Of a stretch of 64,000 nucleotides of DNA, positions 6,514 through 45,110 are shown piece after piece. Position 1 is the first letter of the stretch. Each line of letters starts with the position of its first letter. The DNA is from an uncultured Ignavibacteria bacterium (lineage in GTDB: Bacteria > Bacteroidota > Ignavibacteria > Kapaibacteriales > Kapaibacteriaceae). Below the pieces are notes generated by a model, which searched no databases, had not been told where the DNA came from, and saw only the letters and a list, made by a program, of their open reading frames with translations. The translations under genes were made by a program, and so were the position numbers. The DNA lies in contig CALMZQ010000003.1 in assembly GCA_937870915.1 (NCBI GenBank), forward strand, positions 62,001-126,000. Reading direction: 5' to 3'.

Positions 6514-7289
6514 TCGAACTGCGTGGCATCAAAAAAGCTTTTGGATCCAAGGTCGTGCTTAGTGGCGTGAACATGGTGATCCCCAATGGTAAGACCACCT
6601 GCATCATTGGTAGGTCTGGCTGTGGGAAAAGCGTTCTCCTCAAGCACATCGTTGGACTGCTACGAGCTGATGCCGGCACGGTTACTATCGATGGCAACGA
6701 TGTAAGTAAGCTCTCGAAGTCGCAGCTTTTTGATCTGCGTAGGCGGATCGGCTACGTCTTTCAAGCGGCTGCGTTGTTCGATTCGATGTCCGTTTTTGAA
6801 AATGTTGTTATCGGACTGGTTGAACACGGAGAAACCAACCAGGCCTTGCTTGATGCGGAGGGACGTAGGGTTCTCAGTGCCGTTGGCCTAGTGCCAGACC
6901 CGGCAACGACCGATGCCGAGACGTTTGAGCGTGAATATCGGATCTTATCAACTAAGAAGCCAAGCGATCTCTCCGGCGGTATGAAAAAGCGAGTTGGTGT
7001 TGCACGGGCCTTGGTAGGCCAGCCAACCTACATCTTCTACGACGAGCCCACAACCGGACTCGACCCCGTCACTTCGCAGCAGATCGATGATCTCCTGGGA
7101 TATGTGGCAGACTCGCAGAATGTGACGTCCGTTGTGATTACACACGATATGTTCAGCGTGTACAACATTGCTGACCACGTGATCATGCTCGATAGTGGAG
7201 TGGTGCAGTTCTCCGGAACTGTGCCCGAGTTGCAGGCATCTAGCGATCCTGTAGTTGTTGAATTCCTGGCAAGATTTGTTCCGTCCTAA
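6510..7289 (+). CDS. Mce/Mla-type ABC transporter ATPase
   Basis: The 259-aa protein has Walker A GRSGCGKSVLLKH (about residue 34), the signature LSGGMKKRVGVARAL and Walker B IFYDEPTTGLDP. GGMKKRV with the adjacent ARAL is characteristic of MlaF-like ATPases that power Mce phospholipid transport between membranes. No MlaE permease or MlaD gene adjoins it in this window, so its partners must lie elsewhere. It starts inside the stop of the peptide ABC gene (ATGA), an unexpected pairing because the two ATPases normally serve different transporters. The next gene begins 64 nt downstream. Confidence 0.8.
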   Translation: MIELRGIKKAFGSKVVLSGVNMVIPNGKTTCIIGRSGCGKSVLLKHIVGLLRADAGTVTIDGNDVSKLSKSQLFDLRRRIGYVFQAAALFDSMSVFENVVIGLVEHGETNQALLDAEGRRVLSAVGLVPDPATTDAETFEREYRILSTKKPSDLSGGMKKRVGVARALVGQPTYIFYDEPTTGLDPVTSQQIDDLLGYVADSQNVTSVVITHDMFSVYNIADHVIMLDSGVVQFSGTVPELQASSDPVVVEFLARFVPS

Positions 7290-7353
7290 CCTCCTGCGGT
7301 GTAACCGTATGAGGCGGCACAGCGTCTCTACGGCTCACAGGAAAGTATACTTG

Positions 7354-10300
7354 ATGTCTACTACGACGACAACCACCCTTCATAGCCGATTTCTCGTGGC
7401 CTGCCTTTTGGTGGGTCTCTTCGCTTTTGCGAAGCAGGAAGTTGTTGCACAGCTTACACTTACCGGTGTCTCGATCCCTGGCGTGGGGTCCTATATCGAT
7501 GCAACGCAATACCCGGTTCTGCGTGTCAGATTCCGTGCAACACGAGCCGGACAACCTGTTACACTTCGCCTAAGCGACATCTACGTTTTGGAAGTGAATG
7601 CCTACAAGGGTATTTCCAAGCTAGTAGAAGAGTCCAATGGTACATACACAGCCGAGTTCGCTACGTCGCAATTCAATCCGGTTCTCAATTCTATTCCTAC
7701 ATCCGTAAGTGGCGGAGTGTTTCTCTACGGTGTGAATAGCGGCGACGTTGGGTCATTGCCAGTAACGTGGAGCATCACTCCAGATCGTGGTGGATCAGTA
7801 TTTGTAATGGACAGTTCATTTAAACGTGTGCCCTTATACATAGACTTTGGCGACGTACCAATTGGTGTAGACTCGATGCGTAAGCTCAATGTCCGTGCCT
7901 TTGAGGCCACACGTGCACCCAATGGCAATGAACGTAATCTTCGGATCGACACTATCATGACGAAGTCCAACAACTTCCGGATAGTGTGGAAGGGGTCCTA
8001 TGGTACAAAGCCCCCTCCAGTCTCTGTTGAAGCTGGCGGTGATTATCGGTTCGATCTCTATTGCTCGCCACAAGCAACGGGTCCAATCAGTGACGTGCTC
8101 ACTGTTGTTTATGAGGGTGGATCACGATTTGATGTGATGGTGTTTGCAAATGCCCCATCATACAGCGCAACAACCATACTTCAGGTTGTATCTCCGAATG
8201 GTGGTGAAAACCTTACACCCTGTCAGAACGTGAACATCCGATGGACAGGTGCCATCCAAGGATTCCACACACACGCCGAATACACAACGGATAATGGTCG
8301 AACATGGAAGTACATTGACTCCACGCTCGACTCCGTTATCGTATGGCGTATTCCACCCGAGTATTCGGATAGTTCGCGGATCCGTATCTACCAAAAGCAA
8401 GGGGCTTCAGGAGCACGATGGTTACGCGGACCGAGTGAATCGGCTACGAACCTCGCATTCAGCGCGAACGGCAGGTATCTAGCTGTTGCTTATGCTGATG
8501 GCACTATCGCCGAATGGGACATCGTTACATCTACGATTGTGAATTCGTACATGGCTGAAGGTGTAGCAGCGCCGATCACCAAGATATCAGGGCTCGCCTA
8601 CGTAGGACCCTCAAGAAATATTCTCGCGGTGATAGACCGCCAGAGTCCGGCTAAGGACCAGATCCAACATTTCGCCTCCGGGATAGTAGCACCAGATGCT
8701 CGTGCGGATGTTGATCTGCCAAATGTTATCGAGATCGGTACTGATAGCCTCGGAACCTCTGCCTTTGTTGTTGGTTCCATGGGTGGTAGAATTCGTGTCT
8801 ATAATGCACTCACCCTCACAGAACAGACCCCAATCGTCCTCAGTGCTCCGTCCAGTGCAGCAAAACTTTCGGCCAATGTCTTGACCGTTTCGTTGATTGA
8901 TGGTACCGTGTTGCGCCTTGATCCACTCACGAGACAAGAGATCTCGCGATACAGTACGGATCTACCCAACTCAGGAGGTCCTGCAACGAACTTTGTAGGA
9001 ATGTCTCGCAGTACACGTTTGATCGCTCTAGCTGGGATAGCCAACCCTGGTGCCGGCAACAACCCACAAGAGCAGCGTACGATGATCTATGACACGCAGG
9101 CTGAAACACTTATTCGTGTTGTCTATCGCGAAGGCAGCAACTCTGTTGGTCTCACGTTCAATCCAAGTGAGACGTTTCTTACACTTGGGTTTGCTGGCCA
9201 ACCACAGATTCAGCAGTATGACATTCTCAAGCGTACAATGGCCGGCCCTATCGCCAATATGCCTGGTCATGGTGATCTCATGTCGGATATCGAGTATGGA
9301 CCGGACGGGTCGACGCTGGCATCGTGCTCAGTAGATAAACAAGACAACCTTCTGCTCCGCCGCATCATCACACCGGAGAATGACATGAGTGATGGTGTCT
9401 TCCGTATCCTTCCACTTGACTTGTCTTCCGTGACCATTTCCATGGGCACCAGATTCATCGGAACCAACCTCGATACCACGGTCACGGCAACGATCTGTAA
9501 CAACGGTCCCGTTCCTGCTGTGTTCGAAAACGGTGCACTCCTAACTGGTTCGTGGCTTGTTCTCAGGGATACCATTGCTAACGACACTCTTCCGCCTGGC
9601 CAATGTCTCAGTGTTCGATTCACTGCTATGCCACGGGACACGGGGCTCCTTGTTGATTCATTACTTCTCTCTGCCTGCAACGTTCGGTTCTCTATTCCGG
9701 TGACCATCCAATCACAAGATCGCGATCTCACTCTCGGTGGAGACATGACGGACTTCGGCAACATTTGCGTTGGAGACACATTCGCGATGATGCTCCCAAT
9801 CGTCCGTAATAACGATCCGATCGGAGTGACCATCGATGGTATCTCGATGAGCAAGGGCGTAGCCTCGCAATTCAGAGTTCGCGGATATACACCTGGCGCT
9901 ACACTTGCCAGTGGAGCAACATTAAATGTTGAGATCCTCTTTGTTCCGAGAACAGCGGGTAGAGATACCGATGATGTAGTGATCACCTATGCCGGACAGG
10001 TGAATGTAACCCGCAGCATCCGTGTAACGGGATATGGCTCCGGTGCAGACATTAACATCTCACATCCGGTTCTCGCCTTCATCCCGGAGATCGCAGAACG
10101 TGATGTTGTGCTTACAAACCGCTCATCCAATGACGTTGTGCTTGGCTCCGCAGTGGTAAATACCGGAGCCCCTTTCACACTTTTAACGCCGGTGCCCATC
10201 ACCATCCGAGGCAACGATTCCATTGTCCTTCGCATTCGCTATGATGGTGGTGTGATCGGTTCGAATGATGCACTGGCCCTCGCCTTTACACCGTGCGCAT

Positions 10301-35749: not shown

Positions 35750-36001
35750 ATGCAGTCTACAGATTCTGCCATGCGACAGGCTGCACCGTACCTTCTTCTG
35801 GGAACTCAGATGGCGGCAACGGTAATCGTGCTTGGCGGAATTGGGTGGTGGATTGACTCCATCGCCTCAACAGATCCATTGATCCTTGTGATCGGGCTGT
35901 CTGTGGGAAGTGGTGTTGGCCTTGTTCAGTTCTTACGCTCGGTTCATCGGCTTGGCGAAGAAGACAAACAGCGAAAACGTGATCAACAAGAACAGGAGTA
36001 A
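35750..36001 (+). CDS. atpZ: AtpZ-like F0F1 assembly protein
   Basis: The 83-aa protein has two hydrophobic segments (YLLLGTQMAATVIVLGGIGW and PLILVIGLSVGSGVGLVQFL) with a short loop and a charged tail (EEDKQRKRDQQEQE). This is the architecture of AtpZ/AtpI-type small membrane proteins at the head of ATP synthase operons, thought to help assemble the c-ring. It is followed 6 nt later by a second AtpI-like gene. Confidence 0.7.
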   Translation: MQSTDSAMRQAAPYLLLGTQMAATVIVLGGIGWWIDSIASTDPLILVIGLSVGSGVGLVQFLRSVHRLGEEDKQRKRDQQEQE

Positions 36002-36007
36002 GTACGC

Positions 36008-36382
36008 GTGGATGTGAAGGGGCCTCTTGTTGGCGTGCTAACGGCACTAGGAATCTGTGTGGTGAACACAGCTCTTGGATACGTTGTATCGCGCGTTGCA
36101 TTCGGTAAGGACCTTAACGTCTTTCTCGCACTTGTCTTCGGTAGCCTTGGAATCAGATCGATCTTTGTAATGGCTGCGGCGTGGTACTTTCTCAGCATCG
36201 TTGAAATGCATCAAGTTGGATTCGCATTATCATTTGCGATAGCCTGCTTTGTTCTCTTGCTGGGGGAGATCCTTTTTTTTCATCGATCGTACGAGGTCGC
36301 CAAACGCCAAACCAGGCGCCCGGTGACAGACCTACTTAAAAAAAAAACCTCTGACCTGACGTTCGCAATAAGCACTCCATGA
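36008..36382 (+). CDS. AtpI-like membrane protein
   Basis: The 124-aa protein starts with GTG 36008, with AGGAG overlapping the atpZ end. Four hydrophobic stretches fit the ATP synthase I family. An A10 tract (36338-36347) encodes KKK close to the C-terminus and could slip. It overlaps atpB by ATGA. Confidence 0.6.
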   Translation: MDVKGPLVGVLTALGICVVNTALGYVVSRVAFGKDLNVFLALVFGSLGIRSIFVMAAAWYFLSIVEMHQVGFALSFAIACFVLLLGEILFFHRSYEVAKRQTRRPVTDLLKKKTSDLTFAISTP

Positions 36383-37413
36383 GTCAAGACACCACAAAAC
36401 CACTCCAAGACAGCACCAGCCACGGCGCACACGAGGCTACGGCAGCAGCCGCAGATCCTCATGCTAGCCCTCAGGGTGGTGAAGTCTTTACAACGCTTCT
36501 CGGCTCACTTGGTGACCACCACGAGCTGAATATCTTCTTTAATCACCTACCGGTGTTGCCGGTGATATTTGTTGACAACGGACTTCATGTCTATGCCAAC
36601 GAACATGCGATGGAAGAAGCAGGCGTGTACTCATTGCATACGGGTCACCCGGTTCGCGTATCTGATGGTAAAGCGCCAATGCTTGACCTCTCCATCACGA
36701 ACTTTGTTGCGTATGAGTGGATCGCCATGGCGATCGTAACGATTCTCTTGGCATTCGCACGAGGCCGCTACATCAAGCAGCCACTTGCTGCGCCAAAGGG
36801 CATTCAGAATGTGATCGAGTCTATTGTTCTCTACGTTCGGGATGAGATCGTTCGTCCAAATGTTGGAACAATCAAGCGTACACACCGGCTCATGCCGTTT
36901 GTGCTTGGAATCTTCTTCTTTGTGCTGACGCTGAATCTTGTTGGTCTGCTTCCTGGATGTCATGCCGCCACCGGGGCCCTCGGTGTTACGGCAGCCCTGG
37001 CTCTGTCCACCTTCGTTCTGGTGAATTATGTGGCCATCAAGGATGCTGGTATCAAATCTTGGTTGCATCACCTCCTTGGTGGCGCACCATGGTACATGTT
37101 CCCGATCATGGTACCCATTGAGATTATTTCGCTCTTCACAAAGCCTTTCGCTCTCATGATTCGTTTGTTTGCGAACATGACGGCAGGCCATATCGTGTTG
37201 ATGTCGCTCGTTGGTCTCATTTTCTTTTTCAAGTCGTGGGCGGTGACGCCGGTGAGTGTTTCATTCTCCGTCTTCATCTACCTCCTTGAGCTACTCGTTG
37301 CATTTCTTCAAGCATACATCTTTGCTATGCTGACGTCCGTGTTTGTAGGCCTTGCACTTGGTGATCACGTCAAAGACGACGGTCATCATCATGCAGATGC
37401 TCACGCTCATTGA
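36379..37413 (+). CDS. atpB: F0F1 ATP synthase subunit a
   Basis: The 344-aa protein carries the key arginine in PFALMIRLFANMTAGH, the family signature of subunit a, and the motif VGLLPG in an earlier helix. It is the proton channel part of F0. The N-terminal ~120 residues, rich in His and Ala before the first helix, are longer than in Escherichia coli and typical of FCB-group AtpB. The C-terminus is His-rich (DDGHHHADAHAH). Confidence 0.95.
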   Translation: MSQDTTKPLQDSTSHGAHEATAAAADPHASPQGGEVFTTLLGSLGDHHELNIFFNHLPVLPVIFVDNGLHVYANEHAMEEAGVYSLHTGHPVRVSDGKAPMLDLSITNFVAYEWIAMAIVTILLAFARGRYIKQPLAAPKGIQNVIESIVLYVRDEIVRPNVGTIKRTHRLMPFVLGIFFFVLTLNLVGLLPGCHAATGALGVTAALALSTFVLVNYVAIKDAGIKSWLHHLLGGAPWYMFPIMVPIEIISLFTKPFALMIRLFANMTAGHIVLMSLVGLIFFFKSWAVTPVSVSFSVFIYLLELLVAFLQAYIFAMLTSVFVGLALGDHVKDDGHHHADAHAH

Positions 37414-37462: not shown

Positions 37463-37699
37463 ATGGATCCAGTAGCATTCGCATGGCTCTCTGCCGGTCT
37501 CGGCGTGGGCGTTACGGTTTTCGGTGTTGGTACCGGTATCGGCCGTTTGGCTGCAGCCGCTCTCGAAGCATCGAGCCGTCAACCTGAAAATGCAGGCGAC
37601 ATCCGCACAACGATGATCATCGGTGCGGCTCTGATTGAAGGCGTAGCCCTTCTCGCAGGCGTTATCTGTATTCTTCTCGCCGTGAAGAACGCAGGCTAA
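37463..37699 (+). CDS. atpE: F0F1 ATP synthase subunit c
   Basis: The start at 37463 is set by AAGGAGG 7 nt upstream; an in-frame ATG at 37352 lies within atpB and is rejected. The 78-aa protein has two helices joined by a polar loop (ASSRQPENAGD). The ion-carrying glutamate is E59 in AALIEGVALL; the Gln/Ser ligands of sodium-binding c-rings are absent, so proton coupling is likely. Hairpins follow the gene. Confidence 0.95.
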   Translation: MDPVAFAWLSAGLGVGVTVFGVGTGIGRLAAAALEASSRQPENAGDIRTTMIIGAALIEGVALLAGVICILLAVKNAG

Positions 37700-37850: not shown

Positions 37851-38345
37851 ATGCCATCATTCTTAGAGATGAATCCGGGTCTAATCATTTGGACCCTCAT
37901 CAACTTCGGCTTCTTTGTTTTCATCATCGCAAAGTTCTTTTACAAGCCGATGCGTCAAGGACTCGAAGCCCGCGAGAATTCTATTGCGGAGGCGATCTCA
38001 AATGCAGACAAGGCTAATGCCGAAGCTCTTTCTATCCTTCGCGAAAGCAAGGAGAAAATCGCCGGTGCACAGCAAGAGATGATGGCCATCGTGCGCGAAG
38101 GTAAGGTCCAAGCTGAAGCCATGGTTCGTAAGGCAGCCGACGAAGCAGAACTTGTGAAGCAACAGAAGCTCGCTGAATCAGCACGCGAAATCGAACGCCA
38201 AAAGGATGATGCCATTAAAGCGCTTCGCACAGAAGTTTCTACGCTCGTTGTTGATGCAACGGAGAAGCTTCTTGGTCGCAATCTCCAAGGAGAAGATCAC
38301 AAGCGGATCGTGGATGGTTATGTGAACGAACTCTCGAAGAACTGA
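37851..38345 (+). CDS. atpF: F0F1 ATP synthase subunit b
   Basis: The 164-aa protein has one N-terminal helix (LIIWTLINFGFFVFIIAKFF) and a long charged coiled-coil of Ala, Glu and Lys, the stator stalk layout. The start ATG 37851 has no clear Shine-Dalgarno; M7 (37869) is an alternative. It follows the hairpin region, 151 nt from atpE. Confidence 0.93.
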   Translation: MPSFLEMNPGLIIWTLINFGFFVFIIAKFFYKPMRQGLEARENSIAEAISNADKANAEALSILRESKEKIAGAQQEMMAIVREGKVQAEAMVRKAADEAELVKQQKLAESAREIERQKDDAIKALRTEVSTLVVDATEKLLGRNLQGEDHKRIVDGYVNELSKN

Positions 38346-38352
38346 GCATACA

Positions 38353-38892
38353 ATGTCAACACTGAAAATTGCCCGCCGTTATGCGAAGGCCATCCTCTCA
38401 ACGGCTGTCGAGGGGAAGATCGCAGACGAAGTAGCAAAGGATATGGAGTATTTCGGTCGCACCGGAGAATCTTCCAAGGATCTGCGTGCTATGCTTCGAA
38501 GCCCCATTATCGATGTAGGCGTAAAGAAACAAGTAGTGCGTGATGTGTTCGCATCAAATCTGAACCCCCTTACACTTGATTTCTTGATGCTGATCCTCGA
38601 TAAGGGTAGGGGGCATCTATGGCGCGAGATTGTAATGGAATACAGAGCCATGCTCGACGATGTGAAGAACATCGAACGGGTGCGTGTGACGTCGGCCGTT
38701 GATCTTGCGGAGCCGGAGCGCACGCAACTGGAAAAGACACTTGCTCTACGACTCAACAAAACCGTTATCGCTACCTACGACGTAGACCCAACCATCCTTG
38801 GTGGGGCCGTGGTGAGAGTTGGCGATGAAGTATTGGACGGCTCTCTTCGGCACCAACTTGGTGTACTGAAGGAGAAGTTGGCCAACGCTTAA
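38353..38892 (+). CDS. atpH: F0F1 ATP synthase subunit delta
   Basis: The 179-aa protein starts with IARRYAKAILSTAVEGK and ends with GGAVVRVGDEVLDGSLRHQLGVLKEKL, the two conserved ends of the delta/OSCP family. It connects F1 to the stator stalk. It lies 7 nt after atpF and 42 nt before atpA. Confidence 0.95.
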   Translation: MSTLKIARRYAKAILSTAVEGKIADEVAKDMEYFGRTGESSKDLRAMLRSPIIDVGVKKQVVRDVFASNLNPLTLDFLMLILDKGRGHLWREIVMEYRAMLDDVKNIERVRVTSAVDLAEPERTQLEKTLALRLNKTVIATYDVDPTILGGAVVRVGDEVLDGSLRHQLGVLKEKLANA

Positions 38893-38934: not shown

Positions 38935-40485
38935 ATGTCTGAAGTACGTCCCGATGAGATCTCTGCGATCCTCCGTCGCCAGCTGACGGGGTTCGAAAAA
39001 GAGACCGACATTTATGAAGTAGGAACCGTCCTCCAGGTGGGCGATGGTGTCGCCCGCATCTACGGCCTCACAAATGTGATGGCTTCGGAGCTCGTTGAGT
39101 TCCCAAATGGTGTGATGGGTATGGTCCTCAACCTCGAAGAAGACAACGTGGGTGTTGTGTTGTTCGGAGAGGACTCCCTGATCAAAGAAGGTGATCAAGC
39201 ACGGCGTACAGGCCGGATCGCATCTGTACCAGTTGGCGAAGGACTCATCGGACGTGTTGTTGATCCACTAGGTAGACCACTCGATGGTAAAGGGCCGATC
39301 AAGGAATCTGCGTTCTATCCGATTGAGCGTAAAGCTCTCGGTGTAATCGATCGCCAACCAGTGACAGAACCGCTTCAAACTGGTATTAAGGCCATTGATG
39401 CACTCATCCCAATTGGTCGTGGCCAACGTGAGTTGATCATCGGAGACCGTCAGACAGGGAAGACCGTTGTTGCTCTTGATGCGATCATCAATCAGCGCTT
39501 TACTCACACGAAGGAAGCTGCCGAACAAGGCATCAAGCCAGTCTACTGCTTCTACGTCGCCATTGGCCAGAAGGGCTCAACAGTAGCGAACGTTGTGGCA
39601 ACACTCGAGAAGTATGGGGCCATGGCCTACACAACTGTGGTCTGTGCAACTGCGTCCGATCCAGCTCCATTGCAGTTTATCGCTCCGTATAGCGGTTGCT
39701 CGATGGGTGAGTACTTCCGTGACTCAGGTCGTCATGCTCTCGTCGTGTATGATGATCTTTCTAAGCAAGCGGCATCCTATCGTCAAGTTTCGCTGCTCCT
39801 TCGCCGTCCACCAGGACGTGAAGCGTACCCAGGCGACGTGTTCTATCTCCACTCGCGTCTTCTGGAGCGTGCTGCAAAACTCAGTGACGCTCTCGGCGGC
39901 GGCTCACTTACGGCCCTGCCTGTGATCGAAACGCAAGCGGGTGACGTGTCTGCATATATCCCAACAAACGTGATCTCGATCACAGATGGTCAGATCTACC
40001 TCGAACCAAACCTCTTCAATGCAGGTGTACGCCCGGCTCTTAACGTGGGTATCTCTGTATCTCGTGTGGGTGGTAATGCTCAGATCAAGGCAATGAAGAA
40101 AGTTGCCGGACCGCTCAAGCTCGACCTTGCACAATTCCGTGCACTTGAGGCATTCGCACGATTCGGTTCGGACCTCGACAAGACAACTCTTCAGCAACTT
40201 CGTCGTGGTGCACGCCTGCTCGAAGTGATGAAGCAGCCTCAATATTCGCCGGTACCGGTTGAGGACCAGATCGTTGTGATCTATGCAGCCTCGAGTGGAT
40301 TTATGGATGAGCTTCCTGTGGAGAGCATCAAGAAGTATGAAACAGAACTCCTCGAGTTCGTCCATGCTGGGCATGCGGATATTATTGAAGGTCTCCGTGT
40401 GAAAAAGGCGCTTACAGATGAGATCGTGGCAAATCTTAATGCGACACTGAAGAGCTTCACAGAGCGCTTCGCGTCGGCACTTTAA
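38935..40485 (+). CDS. atpA: F0F1 ATP synthase subunit alpha
   Basis: The 516-aa protein has the P-loop GDRQTGKT (from residue 170), VYDDLSKQA and the C-terminal [12 protein letters not shown]. It is the regulatory nucleotide-binding subunit of F1. AAGGAATC lies just upstream of the start. Confidence 0.98.
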
Positions 40486-40500
40486 GACAAGGTTCACACG

Positions 40501-41460
40501 ATGATCGTCCTCACAGGCGGCGCGGGCTTCATTGGAAGCTGCTTCCTTGCGTCGCTCAATGCCGCAGGACGCGGGGACGTGTTGATCGTGGACACTTTGG
40601 GAACCGGAGACAAGTGGAAGAATCTTGTAGATCGGACGTTCATTGGCATAGTTGGCAAGGAAGAATTCAGGGATATGATGGCCGTTGGTGACGTTGAGGA
40701 CGTTGAAGCTGTTGTACATATGGGTGCCTGCTCATCCACTACGGAGCTGGATGCTGATTACCTGTACGACAACAACTACCTCTACAGCATCGATGTTGCT
40801 GAATTCGCGATCGAACGTGGGGCACGTTTTATCTACGCCAGCAGTGCGGCAACGTACGGCAGTGGCACACGAGGATATGCAGACACGTCAACGGATCTGC
40901 GTCCATTGAATATGTATGGGTATTCCAAGCATTTGTTCGACCGCTGGATCAGGGACCAAAACCTCACGGAGTCTTGTGTTGGTCTGAAGTTCTTCAATGT
41001 GTTCGGCCCGAATGAATACCACAAGGGTGGTATGTCCAGCATGGTATTCAAGGCCGTATCCCAGATCCAAGCATCCGGGAGTGTGAGCCTGTTCAAGAGT
41101 GTAGATCCCACATTTGAAGACGGCGGACAGATGCGAGACTTTGTCTACGTGAAAGATGTCTGCAAGGTGATGATGACGCTTCTGGAACGGCCTGACGTGA
41201 ATGGAATCATGAACCTTGGAACCGGTGTAGCACGAACATGGAATGACCTCATGGCAGCAGTGTTCACCGCCATGGGTCGAGAACCGAACATCGTGTATAC
41301 GGATATGCCGTTAGATCTCGCGAAGCAGTACCAAAACTTTACGCTGGCCGATATGTCCACCATGCAGCGCTTGTTGCCTGATGTACACTTTGGTTCTCTA
41401 GAATCGACCGTTGCCGACTACGTCCAAGAGCATTTGCTCAAGGACTGGCCGTATTTGTGA
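40501..41460 (+). CDS. hldD: ADP-L-glycero-D-manno-heptose-6-epimerase
   Basis: The 319-aa protein has the Rossmann motif LTGGAGFIGS, the conserved SSAATYGSG and the catalytic YGYSKHLFD, matching HldD (RfaD). It makes the heptose for LPS core, so the organism probably has heptose-containing LPS. It is placed between atpA and atpG on the same strand, 15 nt after atpA with AAGG upstream, and is thus an insertion in the F1 gene order. Confidence 0.9.
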   Translation: MIVLTGGAGFIGSCFLASLNAAGRGDVLIVDTLGTGDKWKNLVDRTFIGIVGKEEFRDMMAVGDVEDVEAVVHMGACSSTTELDADYLYDNNYLYSIDVAEFAIERGARFIYASSAATYGSGTRGYADTSTDLRPLNMYGYSKHLFDRWIRDQNLTESCVGLKFFNVFGPNEYHKGGMSSMVFKAVSQIQASGSVSLFKSVDPTFEDGGQMRDFVYVKDVCKVMMTLLERPDVNGIMNLGTGVARTWNDLMAAVFTAMGREPNIVYTDMPLDLAKQYQNFTLADMSTMQRLLPDVHFGSLESTVADYVQEHLLKDWPYL

Positions 41461-41489: not shown

Positions 41490-42371
41490 ATGGCAACCCT
41501 ACGTGAAACACGCGACCGGATAACTTCGGTCAAGAATACATCGAAGATCACCCAAGCCATGAGCATGGTTGCAACGGCAAAGTTGCGTCGTGCTCAAGAT
41601 GCGATCATTGCCGCTCGCCCCTTTGCAAAACAGGTGCAGAAGATCCTCGGAAATCTCTCTTCCGCTGATACGGAGTTCGTTCACCCGTTCTTCGAAACGC
41701 GCAAGACCGTGTCTTCAATCGCGATCATCGTAATCTCGTCTGACCGCGGCCTTTGTGGAGCGTTTAACACAAACCTCTTGCGTGCCGCTGGAATTCGCAT
41801 GGCGGAGTTACGGAGAGAGTATCCTCAGGCCTCAATCCAGTTGATCCCTGTTGGAAAGCGAGCAGTAAACTCTGCCCGCAAAGGTCACGACGAGGTTGTT
41901 CGTGAATTCAACGACGTGTTCTCAAAACTTGATTACAGCACTGCAGTTGACATTGCAGAACTCGTTTCCGACTCATTCCTTGCACAACGATTTGACCAAG
42001 TGGAACTCATGTCGAATGAGTTTGTAACGGTCATGCGTCAGGAAGTGCGTAGAATGCAACTGCTTCCCATAATCCCCGATGTAAAGCAGGAGAAGTCGCA
42101 ACACAACGTTGAGTACATCTTTGAGCCCACGCGAGCAGAGATCTTAGACACGTTGCTACCGATGTACATCAAGCTTCAAGTGTGGAGATCACTTCTCGAC
42201 TCGAATGCTGCTGAGCATGCCGCACGAAGGATGGCCATGGAGAATGCAACAACAAATGCGCGGGACCTGATCAAGTCTCTCCAACTCATTTACAACCGAG
42301 AACGCCAAGCAGCGATCACCAAGGAAATGTTGGAGATCGTGGGTGGTGCCGAGGCACTATCCGGCAACTGA
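41490..42371 (+). CDS. atpG: F0F1 ATP synthase subunit gamma
   Basis: The 293-aa protein begins MATLRETRDRITSVKNTSKI and has SSDRGLCGAFN and the C-terminal RMAMENATTNARDLI ... YNRERQAAITKEMLEIVGGAEAL, all typical of AtpG. It is the rotor shaft. atpD and atpC are not next to it; they must be elsewhere in the genome, as is common in this bacterial group. Confidence 0.97.
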   Translation: MATLRETRDRITSVKNTSKITQAMSMVATAKLRRAQDAIIAARPFAKQVQKILGNLSSADTEFVHPFFETRKTVSSIAIIVISSDRGLCGAFNTNLLRAAGIRMAELRREYPQASIQLIPVGKRAVNSARKGHDEVVREFNDVFSKLDYSTAVDIAELVSDSFLAQRFDQVELMSNEFVTVMRQEVRRMQLLPIIPDVKQEKSQHNVEYIFEPTRAEILDTLLPMYIKLQVWRSLLDSNAAEHAARRMAMENATTNARDLIKSLQLIYNRERQAAITKEMLEIVGGAEALSGN

Positions 42372-42384
42372 TACATACGTTGCA

Positions 42385-42888
42385 ATGAACGAGCGCCCGC
42401 CGATCTTCTCCCTGCGTGGTCTCATCCTCGCCATCATAATGGTGGTGATTCTCACGGTATTGATCACAGCCGAATTCAACGGCTTCAATACGTATGCCAC
42501 AGCATACGACGCCCGAATTGGCCTCTATGGGGATAAGCTGGACTCCTTGAACAAGATCCGATCGTGGAAGGATCGTCTCTTCATGCGCCATGTTGCCAAT
42601 GTGGAGATACCTAACTATATCGTGAGTCATCTTCGTCCTACCGATGTAGTGCTACTGCCTTCAATGAGCTATGCAACCCGGTACATGCAGACAAATGCTA
42701 TATGGACCGACCCACGGATCTTTGCGTGGATGGTTGGCTTCCACCCAGTTGTAGCATGGACAGACACTACTCGTCGATCCACTGCCAATGCATTCGTTGT
42801 GCTCACGGGCAACCAGATCTGGATCACTCGTAGAGGAGGGAATACAAATATTGACTCTCTCCTAGTCGAATACGGGAGGGGGCAATAA
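42385..42888 (+). CDS. Single-span membrane protein (hypothetical)
   Basis: The 167-aa product is started at ATG 42385; a GTG at 42343 would overlap atpG by 29 nt but has GGAG upstream, so it cannot be excluded. One hydrophobic helix (LILAIIMVVILTVLI) is followed by a soluble domain with YIVSHLRPTDVVLLPSMSY. Its stop overlaps the next start by one base, so the two are coupled. No family is recognised. Confidence 0.5.
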   Translation: MNERPPIFSLRGLILAIIMVVILTVLITAEFNGFNTYATAYDARIGLYGDKLDSLNKIRSWKDRLFMRHVANVEIPNYIVSHLRPTDVVLLPSMSYATRYMQTNAIWTDPRIFAWMVGFHPVVAWTDTTRRSTANAFVVLTGNQIWITRRGGNTNIDSLLVEYGRGQ

Positions 42889-44261
42889 TGAACGTTGGTA
42901 TCCCGTTGATCATGATGATCGGCTTGCAGTGGATTGCAGGCTTTGCAACTATGGGTGCACTCCGGATCGAAATGCCTCGGTCGCAATCCGTTCCATTGGC
43001 ATTACTGGCGGGAATGTTTCTTCACACGTTTGCATTCTTCGGTTGTGAGCTACTGAACATTCCATTGTCGATGGGTACGCTGTTGATCTCGGGCACCTTG
43101 GTTGCTGTACTTCCTCATGTTTGGTGGAAGAATGTATCGGCATTCTACGGTAGGCTCCTCTCTCGTCCAACGTGGACATTTACGATTTACGACATGATCG
43201 CGTTGGGTGTTGCCCTCTATGTCGCCTTTATTGCAACATGGGCTGCATGGTATTGGCCCGTTACTCCATTTGATGCAATGGCAGGAATCGACCTCGTGGC
43301 ACGGCAGACCGTTGATGAGGGGACCATTGTCAATCGTGTTTTCACAGATCCATCCTTAGTTGGCCACCTATCCAACCAGCCCTTCTACGCCCCCTTCGCG
43401 ATGTTGCTGCAGGTGATGTACAGACTTGTTGGATTTACGTATGGTCAGCTCTGGGTGCCCATCGTAGCCATTGCTCTTGCATGGTATCTCTGGTCTGTAT
43501 TGCGTGAGTTGATACATCCCTTTATCGCGGATATACTGTGGATCTGCTATATCCTAACACCGGAGATGTTGGGGTATTCGTACCTCGTGCAGACTGATCA
43601 CATCAATGCTGCGTTCTTTGCAATAGGCGCAATCCTTGTGTGGCAGGCAATTGCTCGTGATCAGAAGGCTTATCTGTGGTTGTCGGTGATCATGTTGAGT
43701 GGTGCATGTTGGTCTCGCTCAGAGTCCATTCTCCTTGTTACCATAGGTGTTGCTGCCTCACTGATTTTTATCACACGCGCTTGGTCATGGCGAACGGCAA
43801 TCGTATATGCTGGCGTTGCAGGCATTGCATCACTTGTGACATTTGGTCTGTGGCATGTGCTCTTTTTCAATGCCTATCTCCCGGTTCATCCGTCTACAGC
43901 TGATCAGATCATTGGATTTGATCTTGCTCGTTTTGTTCAGGTCATAAGCGATACGATTACGAATGTTGTCGCTGATAAGGGGCTATGGGCGGGCTCGTTC
44001 CTATTGTTGGCAACGATCGTTGTCGTGAATGCAATTGTAACGAGGAAGGCAGCCCCTACGATGCCGTTGGTGTGGATCGGTGTTGTGTTCCTGGGATTGT
44101 GGATCGTTGGAACAACGTTCAGTGCGGCCATTGTTGAGCAGACGCTACGCCGTGGACTCTTTAAAGTGATACCGCTGATCTTCGTGTATGTTGCAGCAAC
44201 AGAACTACTTCAGCGTGCTTCACGCAGCCTGACGCAGTGGGAGGCAGGACGTACGTCCTGA
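42888..44261 (+). CDS. Polytopic membrane protein, GT-C-like glycosyltransferase candidate
   Basis: The 457-aa protein has ~11 hydrophobic segments. The first large loop (WYWPVTPFDAMAGIDLVARQ, then VDEGTIVNRVFTDP) holds acidic residues in the place where GT-C enzymes carry their catalytic DxD/ED pair, and the tail is amphipathic. Such proteins commonly transfer lipid-linked sugars. The call is only by fold pattern. It is translationally coupled to the preceding small membrane protein. Confidence 0.5.
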   Translation: MNVGIPLIMMIGLQWIAGFATMGALRIEMPRSQSVPLALLAGMFLHTFAFFGCELLNIPLSMGTLLISGTLVAVLPHVWWKNVSAFYGRLLSRPTWTFTIYDMIALGVALYVAFIATWAAWYWPVTPFDAMAGIDLVARQTVDEGTIVNRVFTDPSLVGHLSNQPFYAPFAMLLQVMYRLVGFTYGQLWVPIVAIALAWYLWSVLRELIHPFIADILWICYILTPEMLGYSYLVQTDHINAAFFAIGAILVWQAIARDQKAYLWLSVIMLSGACWSRSESILLVTIGVAASLIFITRAWSWRTAIVYAGVAGIASLVTFGLWHVLFFNAYLPVHPSTADQIIGFDLARFVQVISDTITNVVADKGLWAGSFLLLATIVVVNAIVTRKAAPTMPLVWIGVVFLGLWIVGTTFSAAIVEQTLRRGLFKVIPLIFVYVAATELLQRASRSLTQWEAGRTS

Positions 44262-44267
44262 CACATC

Positions 44268-45110
44268 ATGCCAAAGATCCTCGTTATTCTCCTTGCTTCG
44301 ATCGGCACAATCGTGTTCTTGGTGTCGATAAGTGCACTTGTGTCTCGCATCTTCGTTGCGCGTGCAATCAGAAAACTTATTAACTCTGTAGGCAAGGAGC
44401 CCCTTCCTCACTTCTCGTCGGAACTTGCTCGCAGGCTACCGGAGCCGGTGAGGAGATATCTGCATTATGCATTGAAGGAAGGCCAGCCGAATATTCGATA
44501 TGCGGTATTGCAACAGACAGCGAGATTCAGACATCGTCCAGGCAGCCCGTGGTTCACAGTGAAGGCCAAAGAAGTGTTGTCGGGAATGGAACCGGGTTTT
44601 GTATGGGACGCTGTGCTGAAGCATCATACTGTATGGTGGCGCACCGCAAAACTCAGTTACATGAACGGGACTGGACACGGGCATCTTAAGCTCTTCGGTG
44701 CACTCACGCTTCAAGAGTATGAAGGGCCGGAGACGGACACCTCGATGTTGTTCCGATTCCTTAGTGAGCTTGTTTGGTTGCCAACCGGACTGTTGCCTAC
44801 AAACACCTTGCGGTGGGAAGCTATCGACGATTCAACAGCACGGGCTGTGATCATCGATGGAGACACCCAGGTGCAGGCAACGTTTCACGTGAACGAGATA
44901 GGCGAAGTAGATCGCATTGTTACCGGCGATAAATATCGCGATCATAAGAGTGGCTTTGAGCAGGCTACATTTACGCTGCATTGCCGCAACTATCGCGAGA
45001 TTGAAGGCGTGATGATTCCAACGGAGGTAGACTTCGTATGGAATCTTGAATCCGGAGATTTTGACTACGGTCAGTTTAGCATCACAGATATCACGTTCTA
45101 CTACGAGTGA
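44268..45110 (+). CDS. DUF6544/DUF6920-like protein
   Basis: The 280-aa protein has one N-terminal helix (ILVILLASIGTIVFLVSISALV) and a domain with LPEPVRRYLHYALKEGQ, then GPETDTSMLFRFLSELVWLPTGLL and a WEAIDD element, the order typical of the DUF6544-type family (LPEPVRRYL motif). Its role is unknown. It converges on the synthase gene and overlaps its end by 10 nt. Confidence 0.6.
   Translation: MPKILVILLASIGTIVFLVSISALVSRIFVARAIRKLINSVGKEPLPHFSSELARRLPEPVRRYLHYALKEGQPNIRYAVLQQTARFRHRPGSPWFTVKAKEVLSGMEPGFVWDAVLKHHTVWWRTAKLSYMNGTGHGHLKLFGALTLQEYEGPETDTSMLFRFLSELVWLPTGLLPTNTLRWEAIDDSTARAVIIDGDTQVQATFHVNEIGEVDRIVTGDKYRDHKSGFEQATFTLHCRNYREIEGVMIPTEVDFVWNLESGDFDYGQFSITDITFYYE

What the first reader, a model, noticed from the sequence alone, without database searches (positions are those of the whole stretch)
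40501..41460. hldD inserted between atpA and atpG; atpD/atpC missing from the cluster
The F1 alpha and gamma genes are separated by an LPS heptose epimerase with normal operon spacing. Co-transcription would tie LPS core synthesis to ATP synthase expression, an unusual gene order.
Basis: partly seen in the sequence, partly recalled or inferred. Interest (0 to 1): 0.5.

Follow-up and report, generated by a model that had tools for sequence, protein, structure and literature searches.

The report
Sugar-epimerase gene inside ATP-synthase operon
A gene for making an outer-membrane sugar sits inside the bacterial ATP-synthase gene cluster, and nearly all examined members of this bacterial order with both genes readable have it in the same place, so the layout is real, old and specific to the lineage, while the gene itself is ordinary.

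Summary
Confirmed. The window holds atpB-E-F-H-A-hldD-atpG, with 15 and 29 nt around a full-length hldD (TIGR02197, 377 bits, cut-off 274.6). atpD and an epsilon gene lie together on another contig; that split is known for Bacteroidetes/Chlorobi (PMC4154653, PMC5709465).

The hldD insertion is the real finding and is not a quirk of this genome. Of 119 sampled genomes of the order, 103 carry hldD upstream of atpG on the same strand; two more are cut by contig ends there, two (G086, G117) are true exceptions, and 12 lack one or both genes in the lists. Outside the order: 0 of 121 genomes with both positions listed. In 8 of 9 sister atpG loci, gamma follows alpha directly.

The order's HldD form one clade (98/97), relocated copies nested inside: one ancestral insertion, one later exit. 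The atpA-hldD junction is tight (median 5 nt; 12 of 52 genomes abut or overlap), so co-transcription and coupling are likely, without RNA data. Other heptose genes found lie elsewhere, so only one enzyme is tied to the ATP synthase. Why it persists is open; operon inertia is my default.

The parts
35750..36001 (+). atpI-like gene (ATPase_gene1)
   Evidence: PF09527 39.6 bits, cut-off 26.6
36008..36382 (+). small ORF between the atpI-like gene and atpB, no family match; weak relatives lie in the same position in two other families of the order
   Evidence: tblastn hits in L150 (f7) and L151 (f2)
36379..37413 (+). atpB (subunit a)
   Evidence: TIGR01131 150.3 bits, cut-off 102.6
37466..37699 (+). 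atpE (subunit c)
   Evidence: TIGR01260 49.1 bits, cut-off 43.95
37851..38345 (+). atpF (subunit b)
   Evidence: TIGR01144 85.4 bits, cut-off 65.5
38353..38892 (+). atpH (delta)
   Evidence: TIGR01145 119.2 bits, cut-off 57.5
38935..40485 (+). atpA (alpha)
   Evidence: TIGR00962 812.9 bits, cut-off 484.45
40486..40500 (+). 15-nt spacer atpA|hldD, with an AAGG stretch before hldD
   Evidence: sequence; no terminator-like or promoter-like site
40501..41460 (+). hldD, ADP-glyceromanno-heptose 6-epimerase
   Evidence: TIGR02197 377.4 bits, cut-off 274.6; E. coli HldD 1eq2 227 bits
41461..41489 (+). 29-nt spacer hldD|atpG
   Evidence: sequence
41490..42371 (+). atpG (gamma)
   Evidence: TIGR01146 310.6 bits, cut-off 194.45

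Best explanation
hldD entered the atpA|atpG junction of the already split (atpDC-less) ATP-synthase operon once, in the common ancestor of this order, and has been inherited there since. SHOWN: the position, its near-universality in the sampled order where both genes can be placed, no case seen outside it, the single HldD clade, the tight junctions, conserved active-site residues. INFERRED: hldD is transcribed as part of atpI-B-E-F-H-A-hldD-G and, where stop and start touch, translated by ribosomes re-initiating after atpA, so its level follows alpha-subunit expression. HldD does its standard job, turning ADP-D-glycero- into ADP-L-glycero-manno-heptose for the outer envelope; the rest of that pathway is expressed from elsewhere. 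The most likely reason it persists is operon inertia: leaving without harming atpA or atpG is hard, and steady, growth-linked expression suits a housekeeping envelope enzyme. One sub-lineage did leave.
For: 103 of 119 order genomes have hldD upstream of atpG on the same strand and contig, at least one in each of the 10 sampled families; 92 of the 103 with an HMM-to-HMM gap under 200 nt (from rows). G059 and G077 are broken by contig ends at the junction. Outside the order: 0 of 121 genomes with both positions listed. In 8 of 9 sister loci with atpG (L199-L204, L217, L219) atpA is followed directly by atpG; in the ninth, L218, no atpA was seen. None of 25 sister hldD loci has an atpA or atpG match in the stretch fetched. 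The order's HldD is one side of a branch, 98/97, in 98% of 200 bootstrap trees. atpA-hldD spacing: median 5 nt in 52 genomes, 12 at 0 or less; hldD-atpG: median 24 nt in 51. The Gly, Ser, Tyr and Lys positions are unchanged in 45 of 45 order sequences.
Against: No RNA evidence: co-transcription and coupling are read from spacing alone. G086 and G117 keep hldD elsewhere, so the place is not indispensable; their HldD and that of G113 group 99/98. In family f7, 8 of 10 genomes have 446-1,385 nt between hldD and atpG, in the two looked at filled by extra genes, where atpG could have another promoter. 10 of 119 genomes show no gamma and 2 more no hldD over cut-off, mostly fragmented assemblies; these could not be tested. 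Canonical function is less sure in G028 and G054: neither an hldA-type nor a gmhA match was found there at the limits used, though both keep hldD by atpG. The tree's bootstrap had not settled, and its root is only the midpoint.
Confidence: 0.8

Rival explanations
1. Selected coupling: hldD is kept in the operon because matching heptose supply for the envelope to ATP-synthase production, and so to growth rate or energy state, is itself beneficial.
For: Retention in 103 of 105 genomes in which both genes lie on readable contigs, over 10 families, and a junction with atpA tighter than the one with atpG, even where other genes have slipped in beside atpG.
Against: Only one pathway step is in the operon: hldA- and hldC-type genes lie together on G000:C177, a gmhA-like gene on C175, and the six Glyco_transf_9 matches on C178, C26, C67, C196 (two) and a distant part of C3. 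One sub-lineage left without losing hldD. Long retention in a strong operon is also expected without such benefit.
Confidence: 0.25
2. hldD has its own promoter (for example in the 3' part of atpA) and merely sits in the operon.
For: The scan covers only sigma-70-type promoters, which may not fit this phylum.
Against: Spacer of 15 nt here and stop/start contact or overlap in 12 of 52 genomes; no promoter-like + strand site in the spacer or in atpA.
Confidence: 0.15
3. Several independent insertions, or spread of the whole arrangement by transfer.
For: HldD branches outside the order are mixed between taxa, so hldD may move between lineages.
Against: One clade for the 45 order rows, sub-clades largely following the families (f3 is in two places), and the same junction throughout.
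Confidence: 0.05
4. Assembly chimera or misannotation.
For: Most of the genomes are fragmented assemblies.
Against: Same order in 103 assemblies, including G014, G024, G057 and G075, listed with one contig each, and in the named record PGYU01000003.1.
Confidence: 0.01

Closest known systems
Split F1Fo operon of Bacteroidetes/Chlorobi: a-c-b-delta-alpha-gamma plus beta-epsilon (PMC4154653, PMC5709465)
   Same: Subunit order atpB-E-F-H-A-G, with atpD and an epsilon gene together elsewhere in the genome.
   Different: In the parts I saw (section 8 and passages of the first, passages of the second) neither paper mentions a foreign gene between alpha and gamma; the first does report a split between alpha and gamma in Aquificae and Beggiatoa. 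'Epimerase' occurs in neither main text, 'heptose' not in the second.
E. coli HldD (RfaD), ADP-L-glycero-D-manno-heptose 6-epimerase, PDB 1eq2, 2x6t
   Same: Similarity over residues 1-308 (227 bits), same nucleotide-binding and Tyr/Lys positions.
   Different: In E. coli it lies with LPS-core genes (recalled); the Escherichia locus held here, L092, shows no atpA or atpG match within 5 kb.
   Same: atpA-hldD-atpG with 1 and 21 nt spacers.
   Different: HldD 55% identical to the window's; another family (f2) of the same order.

Membership tests
HldD (TIGR02197 heptose_epim) | Score above the equivalog cut-off over the full model | tested here: met
   377.4 bits against 274.6, model 1-313 of 316
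HldD (TIGR02197 heptose_epim) | Rossmann GxxGxxG and Ser/Tyr/Lys active-site residues | tested here: met
   G6, G9, G12, S114/S115, Y139, K143, K175 unchanged in 45 of 45 order sequences (20 of 20); alignment with 1eq2. Residue roles recalled.
HldD (TIGR02197 heptose_epim) | 6-epimerase activity on ADP-heptose | not testable with these tools
   needs an enzyme assay
HldD (TIGR02197 heptose_epim) | Other heptose-pathway genes present in the genome | tested here: inconclusive
   Own genome: hldA-type G000:C177:37749-38681 (349.8, cut-off 345) and hldC-type C177:38750-39169 (205.9, cut-off 181.5) over cut-off; gmhA-like C175 below cut-off (166.4 against 209.45); Glyco_transf_9 six matches. gmhB not tested. 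Relatives: 54 of 60 have an hldA-type match (36 over cut-off), 55 of 60 a gmhA match (2 over cut-off).
Split F1Fo ATP-synthase operon (Bacteroidetes/Chlorobi type) | beta-epsilon separate from a-c-b-delta-alpha-gamma | tested here: met
   atpD on C195 with an epsilon ORF next to it
Split F1Fo ATP-synthase operon (Bacteroidetes/Chlorobi type) | alpha directly followed by gamma | tested here: not met
   hldD lies between; the order departs from the type in this respect
Polycistronic unit atpA-hldD-atpG | One transcript across both junctions | not testable with these tools
   spacing only

The most novel reading that the evidence does not exclude
In this order, HldD production is set by alpha-subunit translation on purpose: the inserted gene makes outer-envelope heptose supply track ATP-synthase output (and may lower gamma relative to alpha), an envelope-energy link kept by selection since the order's ancestor.
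Probability: 0.15. Interest if true: 0.6.

Novelty: new variant of a known kind. Interest (0 to 1): 0.4.

Why it matters
The ATP-synthase operon is among the well-kept gene orders of bacteria, and alpha and gamma are usually neighbours (a split between them is reported for Aquificae and Beggiatoa; PMC4154653). An unrelated envelope gene that has sat between them through a whole order is a clean gene-order marker for that order, points to one insertion, and offers a natural test of whether long-lived odd operons reflect regulation or inertia: the lineage that lost the arrangement (G086, G117, probably G113) is the built-in comparison.

Tried and rejected
Considered and dropped: assembly artefact (recurs in 103 assemblies); loss of atpD/atpC (on another contig); terminator or promoter in the spacer (none); a foreign base composition for hldD (GC 0.516 against 0.513 for the window; GC3 0.614 against 0.51-0.57 for five atp genes, a slight excess that I do not interpret); a fixed ancestral neighbour of hldD in sister groups (in 5 of 13 class loci it lies beside a divergent ORF that I read by eye as methionine-synthase-like; no hldA or hldC match in 25 class and phylum loci at E 1e-5). 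Naming the order: only one member has a public name in what I fetched (L065, NCBI Ignavibacteriota); that the order is GTDB Kapaibacteriales is my inference from recall, not a result (PMC10408702, passages seen, only defines the name). Literature: ten searches. The listings for atpA+atpG+hldD (5 papers) and atpA+atpG+rfaD (10 papers) held no title about such a gene order; I did not open those papers. So 'not in print' holds only for these searches of open-licence PMC papers.

Limits of the counts. In one search the lists were cut off by the tool, so 121 of 184 genomes with a listed hldD could be compared. Two genes on different contigs (107 of 121) do not prove distance; but only the order shows adjacency. 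The tree used 44 of the 55 other order genomes for which I held an hldD locus, plus the window, 13 class, 12 phylum and 20 of 80 named loci. G113 counts as relocated only in that its hldD has 161 nt before it on its contig and no atpG after it in the stretch read; no gamma was found in that genome.

Full report
CHECK. The window reads, on the + strand, an atpI-like gene (35750), a small ORF (36008), atpB, atpE, atpF, atpH, atpA (38935-40485), hldD (40501-41460) and atpG (41490-42371). hldD scores 377.4 bits against the equivalog cut-off of 274.6 and aligns over residues 1-308 with the solved E. coli enzyme 1eq2 (227 bits). Its Gly, Ser, Tyr and Lys positions are unchanged in 45 of 45 order sequences. 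That these are the catalytic ones is recalled, though the second PDB sequence (2x6t/2x86) differs from 1eq2 at that very Tyr in the printed alignment. The spacers of 15 and 29 nt carry no promoter-like or terminator-like match.

atpD AND atpC. They are not lost. atpD lies at G000:C195:4478-5866 on the minus strand, followed at once by an ORF with the epsilon-chain domain. A split between gamma and beta is described for Chlorobi and Bacteroidetes (PMC4154653, section 8 read), and 87.8% of Bacteroidetes are reported with epsilon-beta apart from gamma-alpha-delta-b-c-a (PMC5709465, passages). Of the 119 order genomes, 114 show atpD at E 1e-100; reading the lists side by side by eye, only G086 has it directly after atpG.

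HOW WIDESPREAD. I searched 119 genomes of the order (10 families) for gamma and HldD and paired the positions. In 103, hldD is upstream of atpG on the same contig and strand; in 92 of these the gap between the HMM matches is under 200 nt. All 23 sampled genomes of the window's family have it. Of the remaining 16, 4 have the two genes on different contigs, 8 show neither gene in the rows used, 2 no hldD and 2 no gamma. Two of the four different-contig cases (G059, G077) are assemblies that end at the junction, with atpA-hldD at one contig end and atpG at another. The other two, G086 and G117, are true exceptions: hldD stands apart, and no atpA precedes atpG in the stretch read, 5 kb in G086 and 0.9 kb in G117.

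OUTSIDE THE ORDER. Of 245 class genomes (46 from the order) and 218 phylum genomes, I could pair positions for 70 and 51 genomes outside the order. None has the genes adjacent: 107 have them on different contigs, 14 on one contig but 266 kb or more apart. In six class loci and two phylum loci gamma follows alpha directly (L199-L204, L217, L219); in a ninth locus, L218, only gamma was seen. None of 25 hldD loci outside the order has an atpA or atpG match within the stretch fetched. Of 80 named loci, only L065, Ignavibacteriae bacterium HGW-Ignavibacteriae-1, has the arrangement; its contig length and hldD position agree with those of G079, a member of the order. About half of those 80 are distant epimerases and weak controls.

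ORIGIN. A tree of 90 HldD proteins puts the 45 order sequences on one side of a branch with support 98/97, in 98% of 200 bootstrap trees. The copies of G086, G113 and G117 group together (99/98) inside family f2. This fits one entry at the base of the order and one later exit. The root is the midpoint and the bootstrap had not settled, so the direction of change rests mainly on the outgroup gene order.

JUNCTIONS. One value per genome: atpA-hldD has a median of 5 nt in 52 genomes, 12 of them at zero or overlapping, 50 at 63 or less; hldD-atpG has a median of 24 nt in 51 genomes, 41 at 78 or less. Ten genomes have more than 200 nt between hldD and atpG, 8 of them in family f7. In the two looked at, G036 has a RidA-like gene there, and G028 RidA-like, YCII and DUF559 genes. 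hldD thus stays with atpA while the atpG side accepts further genes. This argues for transcription with, and translation after, atpA; it is an inference without RNA data.

PATHWAY. In the same genome an hldA-type kinase gene (C177:37749-38681) is followed by an hldC-type gene (C177:38750-39169), a gmhA-like gene is on C175 (below its curated cut-off), and six Glyco_transf_9 (heptosyltransferase-type) matches lie outside the operon; gmhB was not sought. Against a simple picture: of 60 relatives, 6 show no hldA-type match at E 1e-20 and 5 no gmhA match at E 1e-10, and G028 and G054, 99 and 96% complete, show neither although hldD still lies between atpA and atpG in G028 and upstream of atpG in G054. 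There HldD may persist by inertia alone, work with other partners, or the genes may have diverged or be missing from the assembly.

VERDICT. A real, order-wide gene-order innovation in a well-known operon, made of two well-known parts. I found no description of it in ten searches of the open-licence library, which misses most subscription papers. Function is most likely canonical; the reason for its persistence is not known, and I favour operon inertia over selected coupling.

Noticed in passing
L156:3199-3588 (G036) and L153:2670-3907 (G028), family f7: A RidA-like gene (PF01042), and in G028 also YCII and DUF559 genes, lie between hldD and atpG: the same junction has taken up further genes in one family.
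   Followed up: partly
G028 and G054 (L153, L008), family f7: No hldA-type and no gmhA match was found although hldD is kept upstream of atpG with its active-site residues; L153 alone has Thr for Asn at window position 166. What HldD does there is unclear.
   Followed up: partly
L144:5038-7001 (G086:C84): In G086 atpG is followed directly by atpD with no atpA in the 5 kb upstream, a partition of the ATP-synthase genes seen in no other genome of the order by eye.
   Followed up: partly
window 42385-45110: Three ORFs in the same direction follow atpG closely: one without a match, one weakly like LA_3751/PMT_2 glycosyltransferases, one DUF6544/DUF6920; the atp transcript may run on.
   Followed up: no
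G057:C1:2140349-2141743(+) and 2076213-2077607(-) (L168 holds the first): Two nearly equal-scoring atpD copies on one contig in opposite directions: duplication or assembly effect.
   Followed up: no
G069:C76:2419-3150(-) and 6929-8344(-): A second, divergent gamma match and a below-cut-off atpD-like match near each other, possibly an alternative F-type ATPase.
   Followed up: no
window 36008-36382: Unannotated small ORF between the atpI-like gene and atpB, with weak relatives in the same place in L150 and L151 (29-32% identity).
   Followed up: no
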